The translations under genes and the position numbers were made by a program. Positions 15,401 to 39,108 of a stretch of 64,000 bases of DNA are shown in pieces. How positions within the stretch are numbered: position 1 is the stretch's first letter; every line of letters starts with the position of its first letter. The notes under the pieces are model-generated. The model was not told the DNA's origin. It made no database searches and saw nothing but the letters and a program-made list of their open reading frames with translations. Source of the DNA: a virus; IMG/VR virus record IMGVR_UViG_3300030061_002429, positions 37,689 through 101,688 of that record, one strand, 5' to 3'.

Positions 15401-18400
15401 TCGTACAGCAAAAACCATCACCGCTTGTGTTGCGTGTAGCGAATCCAAATGCACGATACAAAGACACAGATGTGGGTGAAACACACACGACGTACATTAT
15501 CTTTGGTCCCGGTCAAGCCTTCCCGTTTACGGAAATGACAACAGTCAATTCGGATGAACAACCTCACCCCGGTTATGTTGTCACAACTGGTAATACATGG
15601 AGCAAAGTACCTGCTAACAAGAATCTACCAAATGAAATCAAAAACTCCGACGATAAATACGGACCACCATCAAGTACGTATCAATCAGCACGTCAAGTAT
15701 TCCATTGGAACACAACATGGAATTGGTCACCAGCGCAAGGTATACCTAACATTGGCACAACCACTGGTGCTGGACTTATACAACGTCCTGAACATGGTTC
15801 GCACTATGGTGAGCATTTTACAGGACATGTTGCTGTTACGTTAAACAATCTTGAAGATTATCGAAAAGCACATCCGTACAAGTTTGTAGGTGCAATGTAT
15901 TACGGTATCGCTATGGGTGCTGATTTGTGCTTCCACATGGACGGTGGTTATCATCCCGGTGGTTCTTGGATGGACAACCAGTTATCATTTAATCCACCAC
16001 ATGTCATTAGTGATTACAAAATAAATCGAGGACATAATATTGTACACCCATCAGCATTCCGTGTATCGGGTAAACTTGCAAACAATTTTGTTACAGGTGT
16101 AAGTAATGAAAACATTGCTTTATTGTATGAAGATGAGTTCATTGTAGTTGATGCTACACGTTGTCAAAACGGTGAAGAGTTGGCAACCGTACTCGGACAA
16201 TCCATCAATGAGTTCCCCGGAAGCAGTGCTATCAAAGCGATGGGTGGTACATTTGCACCTTCAATGGGTAATGCTATGCGTCAAGACCGATATGGTTGGA
16301 TTGAAATGTCATTTGAATCTTATACTGTAGACGGTCCACCAGTTGCAATTACTTCTTCAAAAACAATTTTGATAGCAAGTATATCAGGAGCATCTCAAGC
16401 AACGCTTGAACAAATACCCGCATGTGGGTGGCTCCGTACACCTGATGGTGGTACAACAAATGTTGGTTCGGGTGACATACCTACGTTTGCTCCATATCAT
16501 AGTCGAGAAGTTGTTTATGATAGCGGTAGTAGTAGTTACAAAGTGCATTTCTTACTTGCCCCAAACCGTTCATCGAGTCTACCTTTAATGGAAAGTCTAC
16601 GCACATATGATGATGTAGAACAAGGAACTTACGCCGCAGGTTTATCACATCCCGATTATGCAGGTGGAAATCCTACTGCTGTTTATGTGTGGTCAAAGGC
16701 AGGTGTGCATCGTTTCAACAATGAAAATGACTCAACTCGTGACCACATGACACAGGTACACTTTAGCGGTATAGTCGATGCTATTGACCGTACACGCCCC
16801 GTAGGTGCAGTAGGATGGGCAGGGGAGCGTTATTCGTACCTTAACTCTCTTAAGGTAGGTTCGGAGCAGTATGGTGCAGGTTTAGGTGCATGGCATCCAA
16901 TGCTTGGATTTTCACCGTATGGACCGAGTAACAGTTGTATGACAGCGTTTGGTCATCTTGCACATAGTAACCCAATTCCTTTTTCTCCTGAAGGAATAAA
17001 CAGAATCAATAATCAAACTATAGTGAGTGATGCCATCATCAGTAACATATATTCATGGAAGTATGGACTTCCGTCTACTGATGATTATTATGCAACAGAT
17101 TACGCTTTTGAACAGGCTGATAACTCCATTTTAGGAAAACAACCAGTAACATATCGTGATAATAGTGATGACACATTCGCACTACCACGTAGCCTTCACA
17201 TGCCTCAAGGTGTGTACAGTCGAGCGTTTGTTGTTATATCGTACGAAAGCGAAATGGCACTTGTAGCGAAGCACGACAGGGACGGTATCAAAGCAACAGG
17301 TGACTGGCTTTCTGTATCATCGAAAGTCAATGTTGATAGCGTAATCCCTGCAACAGCCATCACGTTTGCAGGTACTACACGATGGGATGAGCGTATTCAC
17401 AATCCTGAACGATTTACAGCACCCGCTAATGCTGGACCCAACGTAGAAGCATTGGTGAGAAAGGACGGTTCTGACCCGTTTACAATGCCTCAAGCGGAGT
17501 ACCCAAGTGCATTCAATTTTGGAGCACCATTGGCAAATGATGAAGATTTATACAACGCTGAACCTTGTTTTAATGAAACGGGTGATTTGTTTTATGATAT
17601 AGACATTAGCCCCGGTGCTTTCCATTTAGAAACAAGTGCGGGTGTTGAACGTAATTTACAACTTAAATACATTACAGGCAGTACAGATGCATCAATTACT
17701 TCTCGTTACACTATAAGCGGTGCTCGTGACTTTTGGGGCGGTGATTTGAATGCATTCCGTCTTGCTGAACATTCACCAGCAAGGAATTTCTCAATTGAAA
17801 ACATTGTATGGAAACGTATGGACGGTGGCAACTTATCACTCCCTGCTGTCAATGCTCGTGGTCTTGGTGCAGTACCGTTTATCACTCGTGTATCGGGCGG
17901 TACAGCCTACACCACTGGTGAAAAATTGTTTGGTAATTGTCGGTTCTCATTTGAAACAACGAACTCGGCAATGTACCCAATCATACAGGCACAGGAGTTG
18001 AGTCATCCACAAATTGCGGCTCGACATCCCGATGAGTTACGTAACGTGCTTGAGATACCGAATGAAGAGTTGCAATTCTTAGCCATGTCTGTTGTGGACG
18101 ACACTGGTCAAGAACATTCAATCGAAGGTGGTTCGCCGTTTGGTACAATCATACGTTCATTCAAACAAATTTCAGACCGTACAGCCGAGGGGTTAGCACC
18201 ATCGGAAGCGGGAAGCGGTGTTGAGCCAAACTTGAAGATTCAACTACCTGATGCTGATGCTATTCCCGGTAACATCATCGTACGTAGTGGATTTGACCGT
18301 CTACAAGCCTATCAGAACGAAACAATGGGTACGGGCGGTATGCTACGTCCAAACATCGAAACGGGCATAGAGGGCATCTTTACAGACGCTACAGACGGTC

Positions 18401-21400
18401 CACGCTTAGGACCGACGTTTAGTGACCATGAATACGACCATATCAGTCAAAACTCCGTAGGCGAAGCCTTCCCCGATATGACACGAAAGGGTTGGAAGTC
18501 GGCAACCAACAATGCACCACTAAAGACATCGTACGAACTGCATGACCGAGCCTTGTTCTTCCACATTACCAAGAACGGTAACTCGCACACGCATCGCTAT
18601 CCTACAATCTACACACACGATAATGGTGTCATCAACAACGCTCTCACGGCACAGACGTATTCAGGCACTACTTTAACAGTGAATGCAACTATCAATACAA
18701 CATTGTATCGTGACGCATATGGTGATTCACAGAAAGACGATGGTGGTACACGTCGATTTTTACGCATATACGACGACGCAACTGGTGAAAGTGGTGTTGC
18801 CTCGTTCACTGGAATATCGACCAATACATTCACTGGTTGTGTAGGTGATTCAGCATTCGATGCTATTGTTGCTAAGAGCAGTATAACGTCATTCAGCGTC
18901 GTGCCTTCATACTACGTACCTGCTGGTAGTAACCGATTCTTTGCGGCACGTCGAATCCGTGACCATGCGGAAGTAAGCGGTAACAGCCCTGACATGGCAC
19001 ACTCGATGTATGTGACTGGACATGGTGGACCGAATGTATTGTGTTATGATGCATACAAAAAGACACGACTTACACCAATGGCAATTCCACGTATGGGTCA
19101 TCACTTCGTTAATGCTACGCAAGCCATGTTACCCGGACATTGGGCGCACCCTGCGTATCAAGGATTGTACTTTAAGCACCGAGCCGACCGTTCAGCAACG
19201 CAAAAGAATCTTGAGCAAGACCTCATTCAAAGCACTGCTCTCGATACCGATAGGTCGAACTTACCAGCAGATACCCAACGTAAGTTACCAGTCTATGACC
19301 CTATGATTACATTCGGCGCAATGACTGCTACACCAAGTGGTCCGAGTGATATTCACGGCGGTGGATTTACACTCATGTTTGAAACCAAAGTCAAGTACGA
19401 TGGCTATGGTGTGTTGGCTTCAAAAGGTCAAGCGGGTGTTGTAAACTCGAAAGGTGGTCATACTATTGTATTGGAAGCAGGTGCTACATATACCCTTAAG
19501 CATCACTTCCCTGACCCATCAGAAGTTGGTGCGTACCAAATCATCATTCAACCTAACGTACACAAGTCACAGTTTTACGGCTACCACGAAAACGGCAGTG
19601 CTACTGGACTACCTGATGGTTCGGTTAATGAATTAACTGGACAACAAGTAGCGTTAGTTATCGGTATACGTGAGCCTGATTCAGCCACAGGTGGACTTGG
19701 TTTGGTCTTAGCCGAAGCAACTATGGCCGATGTACGTGGTTGTGAAGTGTTCATCAATGAGGTTATGCTTGACCATGACCCTGATTATGGTGGACAACTG
19801 GCAAACATACCTCCGCTATTGCTGTACAATGCGTTAGGTGTACAAGGTACAGAAGCACCTGCATTTACACGACGAAGCCTACCGTATCACCCCGGTATGT
19901 TTGTCGATGCTACACCCGGCTTTACAACCAACATACCGTGGTGGTCAATCGTTCACAAAATAAGTCCTGAAGATTCATCAGCAGTAGGATTCCGTCATTT
20001 GACATGGCACAGAATTGATAATTACTACGAGTTCTTACGTGCTGGTGCTGGAAGCATTGCGTGTCAATTGACTCTTGCAGGTTATCCGTCCAACTATCCT
20101 GACTTCTATTCGACCGTATTAGAAAATGTTAGCCTCTCACCTGTTGCTGTGGTAAAGTCGGTGTCTTCAACGCTTATCACTGTCGATGATGCAAGAGGCT
20201 TTCCTAAAGTGCCATACTATGGTATGAAGTTGGAATACACTGATGCTGACGGTATTCGACGTACACATACATACACTGAACGCAGTGGTAATGATGCAAC
20301 ATACATGAACAAACCGTATAGATTCACCATTACTGCATCTTCAAATTTCACCAATAACCTTACTGTGGGAACAAAGATTCGCTTGACTCGTGCATATGAT
20401 TTCCGCCCTGCTGGAAAATTGATGAAGGAATCGAGGTCAAGTATTTTTACACGCATGTTACCTCAATTACTACAAGGTAGTCGTGATACAAACAGCCTTC
20501 ACATGGCTGATGCATATCTATGTTTATGGAATCCAAACCTTGGCCGACCGCACACATTTTATTCAGATGGAAGTCGTACATGGTTGAGTCCAACTGGTGA
20601 CAGGGCAGTTAATCGAAAACCACTGAACAGCCTACCTGAACACTATGAAACCATCCATTACCATGATGCAACATACTACAACAGTTTAGGTCCGTTTACT
20701 TTTACAATGAATACAACAAGACCGATTCAACCATTAGTTACACACGCACTAAGTGATAGGATAATCGTATCAACTGCGAGTAATGTCATAACAACGGCAC
20801 ATTCGCCACCATCATTACCAAATGATACGATTCAAATTGAAAATGAAATTTTTGTTGTTGTGAGCGATACAGGTGCTTTGCTAACTGTGAATCGTGACAT
20901 AACGCATCTTACAAATGGTAGTAAGATATACATTCATGGAGATGGGGATGCAGTAACAGCAGGTGGGTTGCATAGTGATTACACGGCTCAAGGTGGTACA
21001 GATGTCATGCTCAATCATTACTGGCCGTGTGGTAGTCGTGGTGGGCCGCTTACCAGTCGCCTTGATGGGTATGGGTATGTAAGCACTGCGTGGGATTATC
21101 CACAAGAGTATACATCAGACGGTCCTGTATGGGAAGACCAAGATGATACTGGTTCATACGTAGTAAGCAGTGGTATCACAAAAACATCGTATGATTCAAT
21201 CAGTAGCCCTACACGACCTCGACCCTTTGGTTACCGCTTCGGATTGCGACAACCCTACAATAAACCACAGTGGGCTATGTACGGTGCTCGTGCATATCGA
21301 GAAACGCCTATCTCTTCATCAAACACCATTGCGGGGTATCAGCATGGTCCTTTGGTGCAATTAGAAGAAAGAACTACTGGAAACAAGTGGGAATACGTTG

Positions 21401-23208
21401 GTGGAAGTGGTTTATCAAATACCGACTTTAATGCCACATACGTTGGTATTATGGAGCGTCAAACAAACTTCTCCGCTATGCTCGGTGTAGACAAACCTGA
21501 ATGGCAAGTACGATACAGTAACGGTATGCGTATGACACGAGCGTTTGGTTGCCCAGTACGTGTATTACGTAACGCAAACACCGTCATACGTGATTGGTGG
21601 GGTGACCCGCTTGGTAAGAACATCTCAAAGGTAGATGAAGCAGTAAAGTATTATCTTGTTGATTGGTGGGGCAACACTCGTGGTGAAGATGTACGACGTT
21701 ATCCTGTGCGTGGTTTTGGTATACGCCCTGCTTGGGATTGCAGTGACGTATACGAATATGACCGCACCAACGACCTAACTCCATACGCACGTCTATGGAA
21801 CGGCGGTAATCCACTGGTCAATCTCAAGACGCTTGTTGATTTTACAAGTTCAGACCTAACGGCCACCGATGTGAACTTCCCACGTATGGCGGGACGAATC
21901 AACAACGTGAACAACAACGATTCAGCAAATCCAGTCGATGTGTTCTTCCCAACCAACCCACATCGTGTCGGTGACATGGGTAACGGTCGAGGTGTACGCT
22001 ATCCGACCATGTTCAACGAAGATGTACTCACAGACCTTGATGAGCCGTATCACGCCACAGGGGTCGTTCTTTCGCACCATACTGCCGAGCCGAACACATC
22101 AGACGGGTACGTGCGCCCACGTAACGATGTACTGCAACCCAACGAAGTACTGCGTGGTATCAGTGCTCGGTTGGGTGTCGATGAAGATGGACTGCTCAAA
22201 CCCGAAGCCGTAGCAAGCGACCGTGTAGAAGACTTCACTGGTGACACACCGCACAAGGATGCTATCAGTCGGTCAAGCCCACGTATCGGTATTGACAGCG
22301 AGAACATCGAGGGTGTAGATGACAACCTTATTGCTATCAACACAGAAGCACACAGTCTTCACACAGACCGCAACGTAGGACAGCGAGTGGTTATGGAGGG
22401 TGGCTTGACCGCAGGTTCACAGACGCTTACCGATTACGACCTTACTGGTTTGACCTTCGCTGCACAGCCACAGGGTGGTGCAATGAGATTGACCCACACC
22501 TCCAACTTCAACCCAATGGGTGGTACATACCTCGCTGAAACCCGCAACTTCCTTGCACCTATCAGTGACAAAGATTGGGGCGGTATAAGTGGGTCAAACA
22601 AGACATCAAACCCGTACGAAACAAACGTACACGTAAGCAACAAGCAAACAAACTTGACCGACAAGAAAGTTACTTTCATGCTTAGACCAGTGCGATTGCT
22701 TGACAAGCAACACGTTGAGATGTTCCGACCAAACAACAACCTGCACTCATCATCCCCGCAATACGGCGCAAACTACTTTTCGGCTACTGCTGGTGGTAAG
22801 TATGGTATGTATGTGTATGAAGTAGAAAATGGTCGAGCAAGTTCAGGCTACTACATCCGTAGCACTAACCCCGACACCAATCCACCTTATGCGCCGTTGT
22901 ATGTCATGGACATTAGTGGTGACGAGTCTGTACCAGTAAGCAAAGGGCCAAAGTTGCCCGGTATCAGTGAAACATCATTCGATAGTACAAAACTCAACAA
23001 TGCGGTCACTCGTATTGTCATCAGCGAAAACACGCTCCAACACTATCGTGCTGATGCGGCACGTCGTCGCTCCCGCATTGACAGTGATGAAACAACAAAG
23101 CGTATGGACTTCTCCGTAGTACCACGATTCTCACAGGCACTTCATCCAAAAGGACATAAAGGTGATGTAACCTACAACACATCAGACCACACAGGTGATG
23201 GCGCATGA
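6478..23208 (+). CDS. Giant 5,576-residue tail/adhesion protein with LamG-like domains
   Basis: One uninterrupted frame of 16.7 kb, a quarter of the window. Residues about 10-245 look like a LamG/concanavalin-type jelly roll: FDGVSDSIIIPQ, then FVIEAWVIPDCGGIIAQRDG, IVASYRGGNIELYVNTDMVA and a closing GLYRFEEP. A second LamG-like region is near residues 4295-4450 (FTLMFETKVKYDGYGVLASK ... GCEVFINEVML). Most of the rest is Gly/Ser/Thr/His/Asn-rich, beta-like and unassigned, with scattered small beta modules (about 1,360-1,500 and 4,540-4,650). There is no signal peptide, transmembrane segment or obvious protease motif. Its place after the distal tail gene and before hub and fibre genes suggests a tail-tip or side-fibre adhesin that binds the host surface. 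Large host-recognition proteins exist in other phages, but this size is extreme. Stop overlaps the next ATG (ATGA). Confidence 0.75.
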   Translation: MVAIGRTSHAFFFDGVSDSIIIPQSTFNSTGIERNGVKAPLSALSDVELQNTIGNISYSDFVIEAWVIPDCGGIIAQRDGQFQLELGTVDTPGPAVFHLTMQTAFGDKTITLNTAFDKTTRWDGVVYPSQEYGGIHDSYNRFDTSNYGEASGLNFNNRPLYHIVASYRGGNIELYVNTDMVASKKVPIEYRVKQVDGHVYVGGKGGQFRGAIESIHFSNSKSNNIFQPDFPTLGNASTGLYRFEEPLDIVEKVYTMNAVTAATDGSTKTITIGTADAQELIAKLTGKAYDSSSPIATFTESPYSMGNYEVNDFYSTPGTTAKLSIAHTPYNLLINAGSLNRNTFKPNQKPPERVRLHSIDGSNGNISISSIHVDFVNGTSGLRGLLHSRTADIDNYFVVVGADLLIDNGTGKPYQPPHYGTQIFDRTGQMVLDESDSESHGLVYSSRMATTTSDPKNPFAVVWPTSIDTLFQIGHSGRHALSHITGHDYMRRLPVPNDMTVDQVMSGSSDIVTMRYDSSQRNLKNTISINKNVDAYSPNLKGSVKSFVNTSTVASIVDNGLPASVKELIAIGGAGFDVRPFFLKGPVPQSYDEESRLFHLRPEKESRIALLKVPALQSSHNLAPFVEIHYNAIDLTGASMGISGPMLMVEKTVPAGSFDLGSGTRVIDVITSDLANTVLYSAGGVIDFTTGYMGSNNVLSKPNSLVGDTTGGNDNDSELDFSTTPAVYTPVSDVNAIPASPPKVIKKSHVSSNHNSVYHKLYFTPSTNIITEEDQTFYRKIKPLTTKSSTGEFDIGPVNTRSHMFEMFDIIDNQSTNDNRTAILYVQPSNKKRTNQFYNLSTATNGQATRMHILQLITRGRIRSINQVVDGETNEIDTEIVIRGISDEYLSQNIDVLGSGSPDSHVVKEIEPNAPVVTVTLGGPGQGAVNTKPTFDPSPLMRLPGSTRRMCAVQGVEVFATNSSTSGVTDSLTIRPLNNQSPDLLSWGTYCFPKIGRVYLASGASALYYAKTGSGFAFENSATAISERRFLLSDGTAVESFYVWCKANGVITQSGATVTEEVSDYFYNDDNFNDDSLTQDGSTVNDRLFQSMDGVTHDYQLGSQYSSTRAMVEIPFFPQQFFDHENENVFPGPDNSMKIHIDATYTAHTWNPTPVGRRADDVQVADRTASSAYSYNINNQDYVSSTTITKVEYDSSGKFYKIYVSHPSLFPPVDTSVFEYTNMKKLPRYRRAFLANGMWCVYRNDPSSDGYLRVDEHESATSGVISGSYAKGFFEGAVPQTALFIAQGYRSENLLPIASDNETPSSDYEARSPYYYDNANVKTQGGNLDYGLRQYVSAIEIKAGPLVNPHAPRVQSGVAQSTILSVKGTSGKYVFNLEDASSFPVLTEYTKDVTNLLAIDEGDLMYIAEVRLADGTTHEMVYFGKLLEDKSENTIICKSANTSLTGLENATLSIKRVGRALHSAASVSTATDNERKALTFLPDTSEQWTVAVAATSGTTTTIEITTTASDRLASSNTIGLNIRKDDELYIDDVSHNDVDYLGKVSSIVSNVVGGTTNTVITLTTNNACDVAVGDKIRVSIQSVVAEDQDGILNATWLNPYATGGMRNGDTVWMNMTMNNPHAVEGLFCKSRGVYNEHLVWKGFNGGRGSLTSRPRDSIPLENFLIGDTCLETAQNLAQHINKTIEINYESMLGSTYTDIPRVAYVDPYLATEGHARVLLYDVAHDREFIAFHDLHMQVQSSAATPNIGFGRDIVHAGGVLKLDRFLVSHNGGAPHYFTTQIDVANGFPSENKYLRSTQQSKFIESAYAHDIANSSENFLIQDPTTRGNNIQLKGKGHGHFVHSGLMYGFNSNIYAVSDNALPRVEPAVASVYWANEKHKNSRITSRDAFVKAVKNHRLSKNPSTFSFRDASTLFDTPDGTRCISAFLSLKGIRSSTLDLSGHEEDRLEHLPHWTEMDFVRRMVIDCGEVGVKEGVTDIEAATREIVRLINQGSAKNGRTHARRPSQQYPGESENLDLTRIGVRQDVTSEAKDPSSAHINADFAATGSTYDPAPWWFVEEAFDTHDRGSHMGYVRAHIGRVVEDMNGNEGFSIVIHSTVPGASGRNFCVWLDNSKGQSNYKPQFLIGHGGRFRNFWCQPDETLGENMHPAPMPLNKHGRPFAPVTTLREYVLQEEPDEPFTNNHDVGNRKSNNSSENRNVSARIGGINHNTVSDESFEVQGLSTNLVEGLRAGKQAVGRINFGGLVASGVPGFAPDAGTHGFGRRGDERFDYKYGEAIKFGDSDPTAIASYTGHVNPSDVTEDAIGDSPLYGFRFTDHRGRGYGVRYVYRKFGQAFSDENTTLPSTLEDEVIIHINDDDVSMGGFTLGGHMLGWGDPTGRLDVSGLQLSKWRGNQWRGMYAPNAGVDAEVTWDGTANTLTVVFEAPFNTGASSSPLANHPDLLGYLGYPHTNGVIHLHDTFTGTTDKGVVGNALSYESRTVDDITGTHIFYGVRGESFVSSHYVSSGTVTDAIRTQPHASDNTMRVLLSSRINWTTLVTDEVLAYATNVAINHPNPNQEDGIAVDVRRLYACDGRTLGEWGVAEDAIIVRSHNPQRGATPISSMFSSKLHTDYAIQAAHLEYGEYETLAKDATGIYAFSSSSDAVHQPISDALLDKNRQIDAGYLPRTVLQIRTKGRGYHANTPTPILVDSFNDPVPVDAWRKNLKGITFTSTSGDHILPALNNEMLLFNHYQHSAKYFYHTTTDNGISHALIPAGQEGATIDTFAKEASFGEQKRFYFTDVQYALLNSIQGTNSLTRVEWGRDDFANQDWVDHFTANFSNEDHILMRFGNQKIGGRRSYGAVDAEPLVYFKGAKDSNDHSVPLYFGGGFSGVVLDINDGTENDYSSFYTHPYSNGPTGTAGIQNANEISTSFAIVDCNALLAFFPATPLLNQHRGSLTHPVANRNNVLSPDLAAGAHTRHTDTPAHVVARYTAGIVQQKPSPLVLRVANPNARYKDTDVGETHTTYIIFGPGQAFPFTEMTTVNSDEQPHPGYVVTTGNTWSKVPANKNLPNEIKNSDDKYGPPSSTYQSARQVFHWNTTWNWSPAQGIPNIGTTTGAGLIQRPEHGSHYGEHFTGHVAVTLNNLEDYRKAHPYKFVGAMYYGIAMGADLCFHMDGGYHPGGSWMDNQLSFNPPHVISDYKINRGHNIVHPSAFRVSGKLANNFVTGVSNENIALLYEDEFIVVDATRCQNGEELATVLGQSINEFPGSSAIKAMGGTFAPSMGNAMRQDRYGWIEMSFESYTVDGPPVAITSSKTILIASISGASQATLEQIPACGWLRTPDGGTTNVGSGDIPTFAPYHSREVVYDSGSSSYKVHFLLAPNRSSSLPLMESLRTYDDVEQGTYAAGLSHPDYAGGNPTAVYVWSKAGVHRFNNENDSTRDHMTQVHFSGIVDAIDRTRPVGAVGWAGERYSYLNSLKVGSEQYGAGLGAWHPMLGFSPYGPSNSCMTAFGHLAHSNPIPFSPEGINRINNQTIVSDAIISNIYSWKYGLPSTDDYYATDYAFEQADNSILGKQPVTYRDNSDDTFALPRSLHMPQGVYSRAFVVISYESEMALVAKHDRDGIKATGDWLSVSSKVNVDSVIPATAITFAGTTRWDERIHNPERFTAPANAGPNVEALVRKDGSDPFTMPQAEYPSAFNFGAPLANDEDLYNAEPCFNETGDLFYDIDISPGAFHLETSAGVERNLQLKYITGSTDASITSRYTISGARDFWGGDLNAFRLAEHSPARNFSIENIVWKRMDGGNLSLPAVNARGLGAVPFITRVSGGTAYTTGEKLFGNCRFSFETTNSAMYPIIQAQELSHPQIAARHPDELRNVLEIPNEELQFLAMSVVDDTGQEHSIEGGSPFGTIIRSFKQISDRTAEGLAPSEAGSGVEPNLKIQLPDADAIPGNIIVRSGFDRLQAYQNETMGTGGMLRPNIETGIEGIFTDATDGPRLGPTFSDHEYDHISQNSVGEAFPDMTRKGWKSATNNAPLKTSYELHDRALFFHITKNGNSHTHRYPTIYTHDNGVINNALTAQTYSGTTLTVNATINTTLYRDAYGDSQKDDGGTRRFLRIYDDATGESGVASFTGISTNTFTGCVGDSAFDAIVAKSSITSFSVVPSYYVPAGSNRFFAARRIRDHAEVSGNSPDMAHSMYVTGHGGPNVLCYDAYKKTRLTPMAIPRMGHHFVNATQAMLPGHWAHPAYQGLYFKHRADRSATQKNLEQDLIQSTALDTDRSNLPADTQRKLPVYDPMITFGAMTATPSGPSDIHGGGFTLMFETKVKYDGYGVLASKGQAGVVNSKGGHTIVLEAGATYTLKHHFPDPSEVGAYQIIIQPNVHKSQFYGYHENGSATGLPDGSVNELTGQQVALVIGIREPDSATGGLGLVLAEATMADVRGCEVFINEVMLDHDPDYGGQLANIPPLLLYNALGVQGTEAPAFTRRSLPYHPGMFVDATPGFTTNIPWWSIVHKISPEDSSAVGFRHLTWHRIDNYYEFLRAGAGSIACQLTLAGYPSNYPDFYSTVLENVSLSPVAVVKSVSSTLITVDDARGFPKVPYYGMKLEYTDADGIRRTHTYTERSGNDATYMNKPYRFTITASSNFTNNLTVGTKIRLTRAYDFRPAGKLMKESRSSIFTRMLPQLLQGSRDTNSLHMADAYLCLWNPNLGRPHTFYSDGSRTWLSPTGDRAVNRKPLNSLPEHYETIHYHDATYYNSLGPFTFTMNTTRPIQPLVTHALSDRIIVSTASNVITTAHSPPSLPNDTIQIENEIFVVVSDTGALLTVNRDITHLTNGSKIYIHGDGDAVTAGGLHSDYTAQGGTDVMLNHYWPCGSRGGPLTSRLDGYGYVSTAWDYPQEYTSDGPVWEDQDDTGSYVVSSGITKTSYDSISSPTRPRPFGYRFGLRQPYNKPQWAMYGARAYRETPISSSNTIAGYQHGPLVQLEERTTGNKWEYVGGSGLSNTDFNATYVGIMERQTNFSAMLGVDKPEWQVRYSNGMRMTRAFGCPVRVLRNANTVIRDWWGDPLGKNISKVDEAVKYYLVDWWGNTRGEDVRRYPVRGFGIRPAWDCSDVYEYDRTNDLTPYARLWNGGNPLVNLKTLVDFTSSDLTATDVNFPRMAGRINNVNNNDSANPVDVFFPTNPHRVGDMGNGRGVRYPTMFNEDVLTDLDEPYHATGVVLSHHTAEPNTSDGYVRPRNDVLQPNEVLRGISARLGVDEDGLLKPEAVASDRVEDFTGDTPHKDAISRSSPRIGIDSENIEGVDDNLIAINTEAHSLHTDRNVGQRVVMEGGLTAGSQTLTDYDLTGLTFAAQPQGGAMRLTHTSNFNPMGGTYLAETRNFLAPISDKDWGGISGSNKTSNPYETNVHVSNKQTNLTDKKVTFMLRPVRLLDKQHVEMFRPNNNLHSSSPQYGANYFSATAGGKYGMYVYEVENGRASSGYYIRSTNPDTNPPYAPLYVMDISGDESVPVSKGPKLPGISETSFDSTKLNNAVTRIVISENTLQHYRADAARRRSRIDSDETTKRMDFSVVPRFSQALHPKGHKGDVTYNTSDHTGDGA

Positions 23209-23555: not shown

Positions 23556-24059
23556 ATGTTTGAGAAGGCATGGCGTTTTCTCAAGGCTTCTCGTCAAATG
23601 AAGTTGTACAATTACATTGAGGACTACCCCGGTATGAACCCTGTAAGTGGTTATAGAGGTGTACCACTAATGTCCACGGCTCCCCAAAGTCAAGAAAATT
23701 GGTCACAAAAACCCGATTCTTTCATTGACCTAAGCGGAAAAGGTACGTGGTGGGCTGATAAAAAAACCGTTGAACCACACGCAACTGCATCGTTTTTTGC
23801 TAACGCAAATTTTCATGATGTAGAAGGAACTCCAACAGTACTTGGTCTTCGTGGACCTATGGAGAATTATGGTAGAGTACAACGTAGACGAGGTTGGAAT
23901 CCAACAAATGAACGACTTCTTTCAGAAGCACTAATTACTCATGATAAGCCTATTGATTGGGAGAACATTGTGTTTTCTCAACCATCGGAAAGTGTGACTA
24001 CTGGTATGACTGAAGAAGAGGAAGAGGCATGGGCTAAACAACAATTTGGGTGGGCTTAA
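23556..24059 (+). CDS. MFEKAWRFLKA-leader protein 1
   Basis: 167 residues, hydrophilic, no recognised fold. The first 11 residues (MFEKAWRFLKA) are shared with the next gene, with nearly identical DNA, while the bodies differ. The shared peptide is an amphipathic helix with aromatic and basic faces, like a short targeting or docking tag. The body has several NPT/NPV and WxxKP segments and an acidic C-terminus (TEEEEEAWAKQQFGWA). GAGGTGG precedes the ATG. It sits between the DUF6321-like gene and the hub-like gene, so it is probably a virion-associated protein. Confidence 0.65.
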   Translation: MFEKAWRFLKASRQMKLYNYIEDYPGMNPVSGYRGVPLMSTAPQSQENWSQKPDSFIDLSGKGTWWADKKTVEPHATASFFANANFHDVEGTPTVLGLRGPMENYGRVQRRRGWNPTNERLLSEALITHDKPIDWENIVFSQPSESVTTGMTEEEEEAWAKQQFGWA

Positions 24060-24656
24060 ATGTTTGAGAAGGCATGGCGTTTTCTCAAGGCTACACGCCA
24101 AACCACACTTGGCGAGTTTCATCCTGATTTTCCAAGTCCTCATGGTCCTGTGACTATGCGAAGGTTTCACCCTACACAAGAATGGGGAAATAATTGGTTA
24201 AAAACAATTGATACAGGGTACGCTACTCATGATGATTTTAATCCTGATGAATTTCAACCGTATGAAGATTTAATTATTGAAGGTCTTAAACCGCAAGCAC
24301 CGACTTTAGATAGTATATTATGGGAAAATGACCATGTAGAAGATAACATAGATGATAATGTTAAACCATTTCGTTTAGATGAAACCACATTAGGCAATTG
24401 GTTTTATCCTACTGGAAAATTGACCGATGACCAAAAGGCTTTATCACATGAATTTATGATAGAAGATGGACAGCGAAAACAAATAGGTGTAAGAATGCCT
24501 ATTGAACAATTACAAGGCCAATTTAGAAATTTAGGGTATATGGGTGAAGCACCTGAAGCGCACGTAATAAATCATATTCCTCCGCAATACTTAGTACAAC
24601 TTCCTGATAATTTTTATGGCGAAGGAGAAGCAACTTGGGGGGCGAAGGGAGAATGA
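24060..24656 (+). CDS. MFEKAWRFLKA-leader protein 2
   Basis: 198 residues, directly abutting its neighbour (TAA then ATG). It shares the leader MFEKAWRFLKA, then TRQTTLGEFHPDFP, and diverges. The body is acidic, proline- and aspartate-rich with no known domain. The stop overlaps the hub-like gene start (ATGA at 24653). Compared with gene 23556, only the first 14 codons are conserved, suggesting the leader is a functional module fused to unrelated bodies. It also carries a Q..L..F pattern right after the leader, loosely like a PCNA-binding box; this may be chance. Confidence 0.65.
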   Translation: MFEKAWRFLKATRQTTLGEFHPDFPSPHGPVTMRRFHPTQEWGNNWLKTIDTGYATHDDFNPDEFQPYEDLIIEGLKPQAPTLDSILWENDHVEDNIDDNVKPFRLDETTLGNWFYPTGKLTDDQKALSHEFMIEDGQRKQIGVRMPIEQLQGQFRNLGYMGEAPEAHVINHIPPQYLVQLPDNFYGEGEATWGAKGE

Positions 24657-34109: not shown

Positions 34110-34412
34110 TCACCGCTTAAGAAACATCATGGCATCAAGATGTTCAGCCATATCATCCATCAGTTGATTGATTTTTTCAGGCTTGAGGTATCTTGCATGT
34201 ACAGTGTAATGAATGTGATACGGTCCAACGAAATCAGGATAACCCGTTTCTTCTTCCAAAAATTTGTCAAGCGTCGTTTGGCGAAATACATTACAAGTGA
34301 AAGGAACTCGATTTGGTAAGTTGCCAGTTTTTTGCACAGCGATGTGTACAATGTGTTCTTCGTCTACTTTTTCCGATAGGTATTTTTCTATTGCTATTGT
34401 TGCTTCTTTCAT
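34110..34412 (-). CDS. Small protein with PCNA-binding (PIP) box
   Basis: 100 residues, no known fold. Residues 45-52, QTTLDKFL, match the archaeal PIP-box consensus (Q..L..F-hydrophobic), and the same RQTTLD core recurs in the protein at 35725. The remainder has beta strands (YHIHYTVHARYL) and a C-terminal helix. It lies between primase and Cas4-like genes, next to the viral clamp genes, so recruitment to the clamp is a reasonable prediction. GGAGGACG precedes the ATG. Confidence 0.65.
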   Translation of the reverse strand: MKEATIAIEKYLSEKVDEEHIVHIAVQKTGNLPNRVPFTCNVFRQTTLDKFLEEETGYPDFVGPYHIHYTVHARYLKPEKINQLMDDMAEHLDAMMFLKR

Positions 34413-35434
34413 TGTTCGTCCTCCATTATCTTGTCTAAATATTCATCTGTTACCGACCAAAACTCGCAGTGGTCTTTGTAGTCGCACCAGTTACATTTGA
34501 GTTTCTGTTCTTCAAGGGGTACATCTTTTTTGAGCCTACCCAAGTATGGGTCGGGTGGGAACTCCATTGCGATGTGCGCTCGCACCATCTTCTCCAGTGT
34601 ACGCTCGACGCTCTTGACTGCGTTGCTTCCTGTCTTGTTTGTTGCCGATTCGTAGTGAATGGCTGGACCAGTACCACCCTCGATACCCCCACCCGGAAAC
34701 TCCCATCCCCAGTGGGTGATAGGAAGATACTCATGGTGTGGACTGTGGTCAAGCATCATCTTGTAGAAAGCCATCTCCTTACGCATGTTCGTAGGTTTGC
34801 TCTTGTTGTACTTACCACTCTTCAATTCCATGAGCGCATAACCATCAGACTCGCTTGGGAACAGCGTGTCAATAAATCCCGATAGGTGTACTTTCACTGG
34901 TGTATCATCAATAACAACGTAGCGGTTAGCATGTACGTTTGCCTCAACACCAGCAGGTCGCCACTTCTTACCTTGTGTAATGATGAGTCGATTGTATTGC
35001 CAATCAACCCATTGTCGAATCTGTTCCTCCTCACCGTACTCATACGGTTCAGGAGGCTGTGGAATAAAACTGTGGAGTAGCGCACGCCCTGCTTCATCAT
35101 CAAATTCAGCGAGGTTCAAAACCGCTTGCTCTTGCTTCTTCGATATGTTCTCCCAAAACCACTCCATCATGTCGTGTACGTTCAGTCCACGAGTGTGATA
35201 ATATCGGCTCTCGCCTCGCAGTCCCTTGAATTTCTCAAGGTAGTATTGTTGGCGACACCAACCGAATGTACCCATGCTTGACTTCGTGACTCTCAAGATA
35301 GTACCGTCTTGCAGGTTTGGATTCCAAGCGTATGTGCTGTTTTGATGCCACAGCATTTCTTCCCTGTGGCCTGTTTCAGCATTGTACTCTTCAATGGTTT
35401 GACGTGAGTCATCACCTGTTGGATTCCATCTCAT
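34409..35434 (-). CDS. Cas4/RecB-like PD-(D/E)XK nuclease with Fe-S cluster
   Basis: 341 residues. The nuclease residues are His87, GFID (Asp189) and MELKSGKY (Glu203, Lys205). Four cysteines, Cys60 (FGWCRQQYYLEKF) and Cys314/317/323 (CNWCDYKDHC), are spaced as in the Fe-S cluster of Cas4/AddB enzymes. It is likely a 5'-3' single-strand exonuclease for recombination or end processing. No CRISPR genes are nearby, so an adaptation role is not suggested. ATG 35434 follows AGGTGA. It overlaps its neighbours at both ends within the replication operon. Confidence 0.88.
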   Translation of the reverse strand: MRWNPTGDDSRQTIEEYNAETGHREEMLWHQNSTYAWNPNLQDGTILRVTKSSMGTFGWCRQQYYLEKFKGLRGESRYYHTRGLNVHDMMEWFWENISKKQEQAVLNLAEFDDEAGRALLHSFIPQPPEPYEYGEEEQIRQWVDWQYNRLIITQGKKWRPAGVEANVHANRYVVIDDTPVKVHLSGFIDTLFPSESDGYALMELKSGKYNKSKPTNMRKEMAFYKMMLDHSPHHEYLPITHWGWEFPGGGIEGGTGPAIHYESATNKTGSNAVKSVERTLEKMVRAHIAMEFPPDPYLGRLKKDVPLEEQKLKCNWCDYKDHCEFWSVTDEYLDKIMEDEQ

Positions 35435-35615
35435 CGGTCACCTCTCCTATCAATTTTTCAACATACACAGCCGCATCCATCAACTCTTCTTGGAGGTGGA
35501 TGAGCCACTCACGTAGTGAGAGAATCTCATCAGCCATGCTCACGCCATACTTCTTCAAACCGACTTCGGCTCGACCTTGAATCTTCTCACATACTTTGTC
35601 TTCTATTGTACTCAT
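35412..35615 (-). CDS. Conserved phage protein, KYG/EWL.H...E motif
   Basis: 67 residues. The sequence KIQGRAEVGLKKYGVSM then LREWLIHLQEELMDAAVYVE matches a small helical phage family (raevG..KYG...eWL.hlqeElmDaa.Y) that has a MazG-like helical look. Whether it binds nucleotides is unknown. ATG 35615 is chosen because GGAGGAAGAGGA lies just upstream; an earlier in-frame ATG would overlap the upstream gene further. Coupled by ATGA. Confidence 0.75.
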   Translation of the reverse strand: MSTIEDKVCEKIQGRAEVGLKKYGVSMADEILSLREWLIHLQEELMDAAVYVEKLIGEVTDEMESNR

Positions 35616-35725
35616 TCCTCTTCCTCCTTCTTCTTCCATAATTCAGAACATCTTGGACCTGCACAGAAGCGGAAGCCACGATGTGCGGGTAGGCTACATC
35701 CACGCTTGGCGCAAGGGCGAGGCAT
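35612..35725 (-). CDS. 37-residue cysteine-rich mini-protein
   Basis: MPRPCAKRGCSLPAHRGFRF then CAGPRCSELWKKKEEEE. Four cysteines in C-x4-C...C-x4-C spacing plus a histidine suggest a small zinc-binding unit. Start and stop both overlap neighbours (TGATG and ATGA), so it exactly fills the gap between two genes of the operon and is very likely real. Function unknown. Confidence 0.65.
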   Translation of the reverse strand: MPRPCAKRGCSLPAHRGFRFCAGPRCSELWKKKEEEE

Positions 35726-35943
35726 CAAATCATCCCCCTGTACTTACGTGGAGTGTTACCAAAGCCCACGCTTTCAGTCATCTCGTAATCCGTTAATCGC
35801 TTCTGTGATGGATGAGTCAAGTCAAAGAACTCATCCAGTGTAGTCTGTCGCATAATCTTACCACCGCAGTTACAACAATACTTTACCTTTGATTGTACAG
35901 TTTCCGCTTCGGTCACTTTTTTCCAAAATTTCCATTTACTCAT
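35725..35943 (-). CDS. Small zinc-knuckle protein with PIP box
   Basis: 72 residues from ATG 35943, after GGTGATAAC. A CCNCGG knuckle at 23-28 is followed at once by MRQTTLDEFF (31-40), a good PCNA-interacting box. The basic, tryptophan-containing N-terminus (MSKWKFWKK) and phosphate-type C-terminus are unassigned. It directly follows the DNA polymerase gene, so it may tether a factor or the polymerase to the clamp. Confidence 0.7.
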   Translation of the reverse strand: MSKWKFWKKVTEAETVQSKVKYCCNCGGKIMRQTTLDEFFDLTHPSQKRLTDYEMTESVGFGNTPRKYRGMI

Positions 35944-35947
35944 GTTA

Positions 35948-38350
35948 TCACCATCCATACCTCTTCGGTACTCGCAAGTCCGTTAGAGCATCCAAGTTCC
36001 AATAGAGAGTTTCGTATACTGATTTGATTTTCGACCGAATCCATTTCTCAACGGTAGTCGTCCAGTCGATGCTGTAGCCCTCCAACTGGTGAGGTTCTTC
36101 AAACGCTACGACGTTGCACATGGGTTGCCCTTCGGGAACACCGTCGATAAATACCCATCGTATGCTGTCGCCCTTGTTGAAGTCGGTTTGAAGGTGGAGG
36201 TTGGAGTAGCGTGCCGCTTTCGCAGGGTTGGGTACAACCTTGTCGTACTCATGTAGATGCTTAGAGATACGCCCACTTGAGGCAATCTCTTGCACGTCAC
36301 GCTCACCCTTGTACAACTGTTTGATGAGAGGACGTACCTGTTCAAACACCTCATCTTCATTAGCCCCAGTACCAATTAACGTAAACGCTGTCGAAAGAAT
36401 CTCTTTCGTAATAGCAGGTGCATTCGATGCCTTGAGTGAATACCCAGTGACCTTCATTTGACCCTCCTCTTCGGGAGGGAAAGACTTGATACCAAAGTTG
36501 CGATTCTTCATGTTGGCTGTAAACCAGTATGGGAAGAACGCTTCAAACTCAACGTCAAGGTAAGCCAAATTCATATCTTCTTGTGCGATGGTTGTCAACT
36601 CCTCGCACAAACCTTGAGCCTCATCAAACGGTACTTGTACATACACTGAATCCGTGTGACCTGCAAGTGCTTTGTAGCCACGCTTCTCACACTCATCAAC
36701 GAGCATGGTAATCGACCTGCGACCAAGATAGGTAATGGACTGTGCAATCGCATAGTTACTCCATTGGCCTGAAATTTTACGTGTGCCCGTCATGCCGTAC
36801 AGTGCATTGACTGCAACTTTGACAGCCATCTGCAACATGTTGTAACCCAGTTTCTCATCAGGGTTGGTTGCTTCTTTCATGAGAGTCTTGTACTCCTTAC
36901 GTAGAGCGAGTAATTCTTTAACAACCTTCGGGAACAAACCTTCCGTGGTTTGGTCCCAGTGATATGTACCACCAGTGCCTTCGATGTATGTGCCATCTTT
37001 GTCACGCTTTGGTGGAATGTTGAGTGTGAGTATACCTTCTCCACCCTCATCAACGAGGGTCGTCCAGCATAGGTTAGCGGAGAGGATAATGTTAGGATAT
37101 AGAGATGCGAAGTCTTTCAATGCAACGTTCTCATGACGACCCGGTACGGGTGTCATGACCCATGCGGCTTCAAGTTCAGGCCGTTCTTCAACGAATGAAG
37201 ATGGTGCTTTGAGTTCCGTACGTCGTCCTATCAGACCACGGAAGTAACGAGTCACCTTGTGCGTGCTTGCGAACTGTACACCACAGACTTTCTGTAGCGC
37301 AACGTGGAAGTCAGTGCAATGCAACTTCTCATCACAGTCACGCAAGAGTGTTGTGTCCACTAAACAATAATCAACGAAGTCATCATAGTAATCTGTCCAA
37401 CCGTTAAAGACGGTCATACCTTGAATGTCATTGGTTAGTTTACCTGCGAAACCAAGTTGTTTAGCAAACCAATCCAACTTTCTCGACTCGGCTTGTCCCT
37501 TGCCCGACTTTTGCCATATGGCCTCAAAGCCCGTACCGTCCGTCCACTGTGCGGCTGTGTCATACACCAGTCGTCCTTTGATGGGTTGGCGTGTTGTCTT
37601 GTACCCCGACCCATCCTTTGGTGGTGCAATGAAGATATTGAGTGGCGACATGCGCTCACGCTCAACACCGAGCCTCTTGTGTAGATGAGGCAGGTCAGCC
37701 CAGTGACCTGCGTGTGCAATCAGAATATCAGGGTCACGTTCCTCAAGGAAGGATAAGAAACCATCATGCATCTTGTGCTCATTGGGGAACGTACGCAACT
37801 CATAACCATCGTATCGGTCAATCCATTCAGTCTTGTACACGTTGTTCAGATTACTATGCTCATTCCATGCAAATACCACTGGATGTTCCATGTCGGTATC
37901 GACAACAGCCATGACTGTTGTGTAATCATTGTCACCGTTTGGATTCCATTCAAGGTCGTAATACCACTTACGAGGTTGGAAGTTGGGCATCTCATCAGGG
38001 TACAGTTTCATTAGCACTTGGTCTTGATACGATACATCAGCCTCGTGCGTCCAACGGTCACATCGGTCTTTGAGTTGCCATAGTGTGTTGGGGTGCGATA
38101 CTGATACCTTCCACAACTTGTTGCCGTACAAACCCTGTGCTACTTCATCGTAGTGTATGGTAGCGTTGAGCCGTTGCATCCTACGCAATACGTGTGTAGG
38201 TGCGGCTTGGTCTACCCAACAGAAGGGTCGCACGTAGTCTTCATCTTCCGCACGTATGTATCGCTCGTGCAGTACACCATCAGACCCACGAGTACGTAGG
38301 TACAGCACTGGTGCGTCGTACGCACTTTCCGAATACCAGTCGATTATCAT
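35948..38350 (-). CDS. Family B DNA polymerase
   Basis: 800 residues. Exonuclease motifs: ExoI YYDLEW (Asp132, Glu134), a modified ExoII IAHAGHWADLP (Asp219, but the usual YN is lost) and ExoIII YCLVD (328-332). Polymerase motifs: A DFASLYPNI (413-421), B KVAVNALYG (511-519) and C GHTDSVYV (564-571), where the first Asp of the standard DTDS is His; the essential second Asp (567) remains. The downstream KG..R-type motif is replaced by VTGYSLKASNAP. No C-terminal PIP box is seen. It is the replicative polymerase of the virus, coupled by ATGA to the clamp gene. Confidence 0.95.
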   Translation of the reverse strand: MIIDWYSESAYDAPVLYLRTRGSDGVLHERYIRAEDEDYVRPFCWVDQAAPTHVLRRMQRLNATIHYDEVAQGLYGNKLWKVSVSHPNTLWQLKDRCDRWTHEADVSYQDQVLMKLYPDEMPNFQPRKWYYDLEWNPNGDNDYTTVMAVVDTDMEHPVVFAWNEHSNLNNVYKTEWIDRYDGYELRTFPNEHKMHDGFLSFLEERDPDILIAHAGHWADLPHLHKRLGVERERMSPLNIFIAPPKDGSGYKTTRQPIKGRLVYDTAAQWTDGTGFEAIWQKSGKGQAESRKLDWFAKQLGFAGKLTNDIQGMTVFNGWTDYYDDFVDYCLVDTTLLRDCDEKLHCTDFHVALQKVCGVQFASTHKVTRYFRGLIGRRTELKAPSSFVEERPELEAAWVMTPVPGRHENVALKDFASLYPNIILSANLCWTTLVDEGGEGILTLNIPPKRDKDGTYIEGTGGTYHWDQTTEGLFPKVVKELLALRKEYKTLMKEATNPDEKLGYNMLQMAVKVAVNALYGMTGTRKISGQWSNYAIAQSITYLGRRSITMLVDECEKRGYKALAGHTDSVYVQVPFDEAQGLCEELTTIAQEDMNLAYLDVEFEAFFPYWFTANMKNRNFGIKSFPPEEEGQMKVTGYSLKASNAPAITKEILSTAFTLIGTGANEDEVFEQVRPLIKQLYKGERDVQEIASSGRISKHLHEYDKVVPNPAKAARYSNLHLQTDFNKGDSIRWVFIDGVPEGQPMCNVVAFEEPHQLEGYSIDWTTTVEKWIRSKIKSVYETLYWNLDALTDLRVPKRYGW

Positions 38351-39108
38351 TCATCTCCCTCGTCTATTACAACCAGTAAAGTATTGGCTTGCTCAAAGAT
38401 AAGCGGAGTACCATCACCCATGTGGAAACGTGCAGTGCCTTCATCGAGGTACATCAGACAAACAGGCAACCACTCACCGAAGTTGGATTGGATGGTAGCC
38501 GAAGGTCCGTCTGTGTCCGTGATGGGCAATGTGGTAAACAGGCGACCACTTGCCGCCTTACCTGCAACGATACCGAACTCGTTCTCACCGCAGTGCGTAC
38601 GCACCTTGAACTGTGCATTGTCAGCGATGACCTTACGCATACCTGCAAGCGAAATCAAATCCTTCGTATCAGATATGCTTCCATGAGCACTCAATGGTGA
38701 CTTGTAGAATACAGTGAAGTTGTTGTCGATGCACGCACTGATGACCCGACCCATTGCATTGACCTTTGCAAACGATTCAATCTCGTCTGTACTTGGTATC
38801 TGAAGTCGGTTACCACCTGCATCAATGTGCAGTGGTTTCACTGGTGCAGTCTGTCGCAGTGTGATGTTGGTTTGCTTGCTCGCCTTGATGAATTTCAAGA
38901 ACTTGTCCATCAGTGCAATGTGAATGAAGCCCTCTTCCTCGATAGCCCCTGTTTCAACTGGAAACCTCTTGCGTAGGTAGTGGTTAGCATAGGCCACCTC
39001 AACCGTCAAGAACGCACCACTGCAAGCGATTCGCAGGTCGTCCAAGTCCTTTGCAAAGGACATAAGGAACGACTGAAAATCATTTCTGTTCACTGTTACT
39101 TTTACCAT
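38347..39108 (-). CDS. PCNA-like sliding clamp
   Basis: 253 residues, the size of archaeal PCNA. The pattern of two similar halves (FQSFLMSFAKDLDDLRIACS in the first, and the second beginning near ISLAGMRKVIADNAQFKV), plus the C-terminal TPLIFEQANTLLVVIDE strand, fits a clamp. Sequence is divergent, so trimer formation is inferred from context: it is coupled to the polymerase, in one operon with the clamp loader, and two nearby proteins carry PIP boxes. Upstream lies a structured leader (39130-39221). Confidence 0.78.
   Translation of the reverse strand: MVKVTVNRNDFQSFLMSFAKDLDDLRIACSGAFLTVEVAYANHYLRKRFPVETGAIEEEGFIHIALMDKFLKFIKASKQTNITLRQTAPVKPLHIDAGGNRLQIPSTDEIESFAKVNAMGRVISACIDNNFTVFYKSPLSAHGSISDTKDLISLAGMRKVIADNAQFKVRTHCGENEFGIVAGKAASGRLFTTLPITDTDGPSATIQSNFGEWLPVCLMYLDEGTARFHMGDGTPLIFEQANTLLVVIDEGDE

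What the first reader, a model, noticed from the sequence alone, without database searches (positions are those of the whole stretch)
34110..35943. Two unrelated small proteins share a PCNA-binding box
QTTLDKFL in the 100-residue protein and QTTLDEFF in the zinc-knuckle protein are textbook PIP boxes, both within 5 kb of the viral clamp gene. They could form a clamp tool-belt of adaptors. The clamp, not the polymerase (no C-terminal PIP box), may thus be the organising hub.
Basis: partly seen in the sequence, partly recalled or inferred. Interest (0 to 1): 0.7.

Follow-up and report, generated by a model that had tools for sequence, protein, structure and literature searches.

The report
Small viral clamp-docking box proteins
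This archaeal virus and its relatives keep a short PCNA-clamp docking motif on small proteins beside their DNA polymerase, which lacks one of its own, and one of these proteins carries two copies, so the clamp probably recruits partners through detachable adaptors.

Summary
Observation confirmed and extended. QTTLDKFL (100-aa protein) and QTTLDEFF (77-aa protein) are in the sequence and far above chance. In the 100-aa family (43 divergent members, 12-75% identical) the only columns at least 90% conserved are Gln45 and Leu48, the two anchors of the box. In the other family the box is universal and a second Q-x-x-[LI] element follows, usually 14 residues later, so it is a double-box protein; in some relatives it shrinks to 29 residues, almost nothing but two boxes. 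All 61 distinct magrovirus-type modules spanning clamp, polymerase and primase carry at least one box on a small protein. The neighbouring clamp, unrecognised by sequence, is a PCNA by predicted fold (Z 18.9). The related polymerase of haloarchaeal viruses has the box at its own C-terminus (11/11); marine ones never do (0/64). Corrections: not a zinc knuckle; the eighth-position aromatic is not conserved; two deeper lineages keep the module but no such box; more box proteins lie elsewhere in the genome. Binding is unproven, and whether the target is the viral or the host clamp is open. Best reading: clamp-docking adaptors. A new variant of a known kind.

The parts
34110..34412 (-). P0001: 100-aa small alpha/beta protein with box QTTLDKFL, in the slot between the Cas4-like nuclease and the primase; its start overlaps the nuclease gene by 4 bp
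34257..34280 (-). box QTTLDKFL (residues 45-52 of P0001)
35725..35958 (-). P0002: 77-aa ORF (probable start Met6 at 35943, 72 aa), tandem double-box protein with C(x)CG motif, immediately after the polymerase gene
35824..35847 (-). first box QTTLDEFF of P0002
35782..35805 (-). second, degenerate box QKRLTDYE of P0002 (in relatives QKRLYDFE, QRKITDWL, QRLISDYI, QQVIWEYI)
38347..39108 (-). viral sliding clamp, PCNA fold (253 aa), predicted helix in the interdomain region, non-canonical C-terminus
35948..38350 (-). family B DNA polymerase without C-terminal box; conserved tail VPKRYGW
35412..35639 (-). MazG-like 75-aa protein (name from resemblance only); in L084 its relative carries a C-terminal box (QTTLDEFG)
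34409..35434 (-). PD-(D/E)XK (Cas4/RecB-like) nuclease flanking P0001
33017..34105 (-). archaeo-eukaryotic-type primase flanking P0001
41545..42555 (-). clamp-loader (RFC small-subunit-like) ATPase

Best explanation
P0001 and P0002 are dedicated sliding-clamp-binding proteins of a magrovirus-type archaeal virus. Each uses a PIP-like box (Q-[TS]-[TS]-L-x-[ED]-[FYW]) to dock on a PCNA-type clamp, most likely the virus's own divergent PCNA encoded next door. The rest of each protein, or a partner translated beside it (polymerase B for P0002; nuclease or primase for P0001), is thereby held at the clamp. The polymerase has no box, so the docking motif is supplied in trans. P0002 presents two boxes about 14 residues apart, which I infer raises avidity or lets one box exchange while the other stays bound. 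Shown here: presence, conservation, synteny, double box, PCNA fold of the clamp, absence of a box on the polymerase. Inferred: binding, the clamp targeted, the partners, the effect.
For: Only columns at least 90% conserved in 43 P0001 relatives are Q45 (42/43) and L48 (40/43). Strict box found in P0002 relatives 34/34 (shuffled 0.001) and P0001 90% (shuffled 0.006), against 0% in RFC, OB445, RecA-like, clamp, primase, ERCC4, exonuclease and thermosome. 61/61 modules have at least one box on a small protein. Second Q-x-x-[LI] at +13 to +16 in 17 of 19 non-redundant P0002-slot proteins; shuffling gives 0.4 on average, maximum 4. Amino-acid-level selection: 39 distinct DNA sequences for 47 boxes; 3 synonymous and 0 non-synonymous codon changes in the box against 22 and 25 in the rest between window and L024. 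In some lineages the slot protein is a 29-67-aa double-box protein with a Shine-Dalgarno-like sequence or overlapping the polymerase stop. All five modules where P0001 lost its box or is absent (L075, L078, L091, L096, L100) have such a protein; only one of the other 56 does. P0002 sits just after the polymerase or just before the clamp. Clamp is a PCNA by fold, best matches include archaeal PCNA-partner complexes. Haloviral relative of the polymerase has the box at its own C-terminus 11/11, marine ones 0/64. P0001 box lies at a strand end followed by a pLDDT 59 loop.
Against: No binding evidence. The clamp lacks the canonical C-terminal LAPR segment and shows no profile-level homology to archaeal PCNA. 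Two deeper lineages keep clamp, polymerase and module without this box type. The polymerase tail PK.Y(G)W is itself conserved and could be its own clamp contact. Box proteins also occur in the late/structural half of the genome. Three of 11 haloviruses have both a polymerase box and an adjacent small box ORF, so a simple 'moved off the polymerase' history is not established.
Confidence: 0.5

Rival explanations
1. The boxes target the HOST PCNA: small p21/TIP-like competitors that strip host partners from the host clamp or capture it, while the viral polymerase uses the viral clamp through its conserved Y-(G)-W tail.
For: Boxes match the canonical archaeal PIP peptide KTTQSTLDSFFK (PMC4929162) and cellular FEN1 tails KQETLDAFF / RQETLDTFL, whereas the viral clamp C-terminus is LLVVIDEGDE rather than LLAPR. 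Haloviruses with no detectable clamp of their own keep the same motif on the polymerase, presumably for host PCNA. No viral replication enzyme of the module carries a conserved terminal box. A 29-aa double-box peptide looks like a competitor.
Against: Synteny with viral clamp and polymerase, including placement directly before the clamp gene. P0001 is a folded domain, more than a peptide competitor needs. Box-less lineage L316-L333 also changed its clamp C-terminus to LLILKHQEG. A pure inhibitor need not be universal in the replication module.
Confidence: 0.28
2. Clamp-coupled late transcription as in phage T4 (gp33/gp55 with gp45): the box proteins couple the DNA-loaded clamp to the transcription machinery.
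For: Precedent for small phage proteins that act through a sliding clamp (PMC2988020, PMC7892883). P0002 is small, with basic stretches near both ends and a cysteine pair. Related viruses encode TFB.
Against: No RNA polymerase- or TFB-binding element was identified; P0002 has only two to three cysteines; no box was found on an identifiable transcription factor.
Confidence: 0.08
3. The conserved Q-x-x-L-x-x-F element is not a clamp-binding motif but a structural or protein-interaction motif peculiar to these viruses, also used in late proteins.
For: It recurs in late/structural-side proteins such as window 24060-24656 RQTTLGEFH and the C-terminus of L127:577-1389. The second aromatic is not conserved.
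Against: Coincidence with a clamp-centred module, the canonical PIP core, the PIP at the related haloviral polymerase C-terminus, and presence on structurally unrelated carriers.
Confidence: 0.14

Closest known systems
PIP-box proteins of archaea (FEN1, RFC-L, PolB/PolD, NucS, NreA)
   Same: Q-x-x-L-x-x-aromatic core, here QTTLDEFF against the canonical peptide QSTLDSFF (PMC4929162)
   Different: Box sits on small proteins of unknown family and not on an enzyme; second aromatic relaxed; tandem boxes 13-16 residues apart; virus-encoded
TIP (Thermococcales inhibitor of PCNA) and p21-type PCNA competitors
   Same: Small protein thought to act mainly by occupying PCNA
   Different: No relationship tested; here the genes lie in a viral replication module beside a viral clamp, and one is a folded domain
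Haloarchaeal tailed virus (Hafunaviridae) PolB C-terminal PIP
   Same: Related polymerase with single-aromatic boxes such as QTGLAAFC and QRGLADYV
   Different: In cis on the polymerase; those viruses have no clamp detected by either model; marine viruses have no box on PolB
T4 gp33/gp55 sliding-clamp ligands
   Same: Small phage proteins that act through a clamp
   Different: Different clamp class; transcription role not shown here
Accessory polymerase subunits that bring the PIP (e.g. eukaryotic Pol delta small subunits)
   Same: Docking motif supplied by a small subunit
   Different: Recalled from general knowledge; no polymerase contact shown here

Membership tests
PIP-box (PCNA-interacting) protein | Q-x-x-h-x-x-a-a motif | tested here: met
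   P0002 QTTLDEFF fully; P0001 QTTLDKFL with Leu in place of the second aromatic
PIP-box (PCNA-interacting) protein | Anchor residues conserved among relatives | tested here: met
   Q45 42/43, L48 40/43, position 51 aromatic (F/Y/W) 41/43 in P0001; 34/34 P0002-slot proteins
PIP-box (PCNA-interacting) protein | Two consecutive aromatics conserved | tested here: not met
   Position 8 varies (F, D, M, L, V, A) in the P0001 family
PIP-box (PCNA-interacting) protein | Box accessible, forms a 3-10 helix | tested here: inconclusive
   AF2 monomer: short helix 48-51 at the end of strand 38-46, pLDDT 59 for residues 51-60; no surface calculation possible
PIP-box (PCNA-interacting) protein | Direct binding to a PCNA | not testable with these tools
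   No complex prediction or wet test available
PCNA sliding clamp (P0003) | Two-domain PCNA fold | tested here: met
   AF2 pLDDT 95.3; Z 18.9, 3.3 A over 224 residues to A. fulgidus PCNA; Foldseek E 3.4e-14
PCNA sliding clamp (P0003) | Recognised by PCNA sequence models | tested here: not met
   No Pfam hit, no clamp among PDB sequence hits; hhalign probability 2.7%
PCNA sliding clamp (P0003) | PIP pocket residues (IDCL hydrophobics, C-terminal AP-K/R) | tested here: inconclusive
   [LI]P motif and a hydrophobic C-terminal strand conserved, LAPR absent; no residue-level structural alignment available
   Only C(x)CG or CxxCG; no further conserved Cys/His; absent in the double-box minis
Magrovirales-type archaeal virus | PolB, primase, clamp, clamp loader, chaperonin module opposed to a morphogenesis module | tested here: met
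   Module and gene order against the published description

The most novel reading that the evidence does not exclude
An archaeal virus order runs its replisome with the PCNA docking motif detached from the polymerase: the motif is kept on interchangeable small carriers (a folded domain, a double-box protein, a 29-residue double-box peptide, or a MazG-like tail), so that clamp recruitment is done in trans by dedicated adaptors, possibly with the same box also used by late proteins.
Probability: 0.35. Interest if true: 0.78.

Novelty: new variant of a known kind. Interest (0 to 1): 0.6.

Why it matters
Magroviruses are abundant uncultured marine viruses whose replication machinery is known only from gene lists. 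The papers I could search mention PCNA in magroviruses only as a gene-map label, and I found none that describes how their enzymes meet the clamp. The finding assigns a testable role to two anonymous gene families present across the group, and shows that the motif is kept while its carrier changes. The carriers include what is nearly the minimal clamp ligand, two boxes in 29 residues. If the target is the viral clamp, it is a polymerase holoenzyme with the docking motif in trans; if the host clamp, a viral PCNA competitor family in archaea.

Tried and rejected
Zinc-knuckle reading of P0002: rejected by the family alignment. Chance motif: rejected. Generic Q-x-x-L-x-x-aromatic hits in polymerase (QRKLNWF, exonuclease region), Cas4-like (QYYIKRF) and VirE-like proteins: set aside as conserved internal motifs of larger enzymes, not terminal boxes. 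P0001 fold: no Foldseek hit below 1e-3; best VIA match a minigluzincin (4qhh, Z 7.8), within the stated noise and without an HExxH motif; not claimed. Pocket mapping by hhalign against archaeal PCNAs failed. INPHARED holds no P0001, P0002 or clamp relatives at the limits used. The attempt to reach Poseidoniales host genomes for host PIP boxes failed: the genome scan landed in other archaea, one class including a Methanopyri MAG. A polymerase alignment mixing haloviral and marine sequences was too diverse for a scan. A paper search for PIP box, PCNA and archaeal virus together gave nothing. Not tried: complex prediction, for lack of a tool.

Full report
WHAT IS THERE. The window is bases 37689-101688 of a 101,688-bp virus record. 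The region on the minus strand is a replication module: clamp loader, a 445-aa protein, a 316-aa P-loop protein, clamp, polymerase B, P0002, a MazG-like protein, a PD-(D/E)XK nuclease, P0001, primase, a cysteine-rich protein, an ERCC4 nuclease, a VirE-like protein, an exonuclease and a thermosome (several of these names rest on resemblance only). This matches the published description of Magrovirales, viruses of Poseidoniales (PMC12999244; PMC10768690).

THE BOXES. QTTLDKFL lies at 34257-34280 and QTTLDEFF at 35824-35847, the only strict matches in the six-frame ORFs of the window. Neither protein matches a Pfam family, and PHROG matches are only weak and to families of unknown function. The two proteins are alike only around the box.

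CONSERVATION. Relatives were collected with P0001, P0002, the clamp and a polymerase alignment. Gene order is kept in essentially all loci. In 43 P0001-family proteins, 12-75% identical to the window protein, the only columns at least 90% conserved are Q45 and L48; position 51 is F/Y/W in 41 of 43, position 52 is variable. A strict box occurs in 34/34 P0002-slot proteins and 90% of P0001 proteins, against 0.001 and 0.006 by shuffling, and in none of RFC, OB445, RecA-like, clamp, primase, ERCC4, exonuclease or thermosome. All 61 distinct loci that span the module have at least one box on a small protein (a few of the additional hits counted there are in very short ORFs and may be chance). Codon use at the box is diverse (39 different DNA sequences for 47 boxes), so selection acts on the amino acids.

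THE SECOND BOX. P0002 and its slot relatives carry a second Q-x-x-[LI] element usually exactly 14 residues after the first (range 13-16; 11 in L040/L041): window QKRLTDYE, elsewhere QKRLYDFE, QRKITDWL, QRLISDYI, QQVIWEYI. In 19 non-redundant proteins 17 have it, against 0.4 expected and a maximum of 4 in 20,000 shuffles (L085 was mis-anchored in that script and also has the spacing of 14). In L091, L092, L096, L097 and L100 the gene directly after the polymerase encodes little more than two boxes, e.g. MEEKKKYRQTTLHEFMPEATRQTTLEEFL, overlapping or abutting the polymerase stop; in L070, L075 and L078 two near-identical boxes stand at the N-terminus behind a Shine-Dalgarno-like sequence. By general knowledge of PCNA geometry (not computed here), 13-16 residues cannot bridge two pockets of one ring, so avidity, exchange, or two different targets are more likely.

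CARRIERS CHANGE, THE BOX STAYS. The five modules with no box on P0001 (L075, L078) or no box-bearing P0001 in its slot (L091, L096, L100) all have the double-box protein after the polymerase; only one of the 56 others (L070) does. These are perhaps two to three independent events, so this is suggestive only. In L084 the box is the tail of a MazG-like protein. In L072, L073, L076, L077 and L079 P0002 stands directly before the clamp gene.

THE CLAMP. No sequence method recognised P0003, but its predicted structure (pLDDT 95.3) is a PCNA: Z 18.9 to A. fulgidus PCNA, Foldseek E 3.4e-14 to P. furiosus PCNA. Its interdomain segment is long with a predicted helix (116-128), and its C-terminus reads LLVVIDEGDE where archaeal PCNAs read LLAPRxE. 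Whether the PIP pocket is intact could not be decided.

THE POLYMERASE. Marine polymerases end in PK.Y(G)W-like tails and never carry a box near the C-terminus (0/64; none in the 65 listed C-termini). The related polymerase of haloarchaeal tailed viruses ends in a box in 11 of 11 complete cases (QTGLAAFC, QSGLGAFI, QRGLADYV), and the seven haloviral records tested show no clamp by either the Pfam model or the magroviral alignment. So viruses without a detectable clamp carry the motif on the polymerase, and viruses with their own clamp carry it on small proteins. Three of the 11 haloviruses also have a small box ORF right after the polymerase.

COUNTER-EVIDENCE. Two deeper lineages (L316-L333; L338, L339, L341, L347, L349, L352, L363) keep clamp, polymerase and module but show no box of this type in the stretches held. 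In the first of these the clamp C-terminus has changed to LLILKHQEG, which would fit loss of a ligand; in the second it has not changed.

BEYOND THE MODULE. In the whole virus, seven strict hits stand against 0.75 expected (the gene chooser missed P0002). Several are on late-side proteins of unknown function, some beginning with an AW.FLKA-like motif and some ending in the box. Either more proteins use the clamp, or the motif has a second meaning.

P0001 STRUCTURE. The model (pLDDT 85) is helix-strand-strand-strand-helix; the box runs from the end of strand 2 into a short helical turn and a loop of pLDDT 59, compatible with an accessible box. No solved fold matched convincingly.

CONCLUSION. 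That the boxes are functional PCNA-binding motifs I rate at about 0.8; that they bind the viral clamp as trans adaptors 0.5; the host clamp 0.28.

Noticed in passing
window 23556-24059 (+) and 24060-24656 (+): Two neighbouring late-side proteins share the N-terminus MFEKAWRFLKA(S/T)RQ followed by box-like QMKLYNY and QTTLGEF; a relative (L129:5806-7251) has SWSFLKARQTTLSDW. Possibly a targeting signal with an attached box.
   Followed up: partly
L127:577-1389 (+) (first part of the same record), L124, L123: Protein of about 270 aa ending in a box at the very C-terminus (TNQTSLNDFGQ; near relative TRQTRLDDFGQ; another virus KQTSLTDF).
   Followed up: partly
L127:2037-3722 (+): 561-aa protein of unknown function with KQQTRLSDFYP near its N-terminus.
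   Followed up: no
window 35948-35970 (-), polymerase C-terminus: Conserved tail PK.Y(G)W in marine PolBs, at the position where haloviral PolBs carry their PIP; a possible alternative clamp contact.
   Followed up: partly
window 38347-39108 (-): Viral PCNA with an unusually long interdomain segment containing a predicted helix (residues 116-128) and no LAPR C-terminus.
   Followed up: partly
L318, L323, L327, L329 between polymerase and Cas4-like gene: In box-less lineages a 96-98-aa protein with conserved GDA(M/L)(L/F)xxY(M/I/V/L)G follows the polymerase; could be a Gln-less substitute motif.
   Followed up: no
window 35725-35775 (-), C-terminus of P0002: Conserved C-terminal motif E(S/R/K/T)(V/I)G...RKYRG(M/N/S)(I/L) in most P0002 relatives, function unknown; lost in L010, L012 and the double-box minis.
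   Followed up: no
L220:11734-11850, L228 and L233 just after PolB: Some haloarchaeal tailed viruses have a small ORF after PolB with a QSSL.DF box in addition to the PIP on PolB itself.
   Followed up: partly
L084:9379-9621: MazG-like protein with a C-terminal box (NMKQTTLDEFGLSME), a natural fusion of the motif to another small protein of the module.
   Followed up: yes
window 6478-23208 (+): A single 5576-aa ORF in the morphogenesis half of the genome.
   Followed up: no
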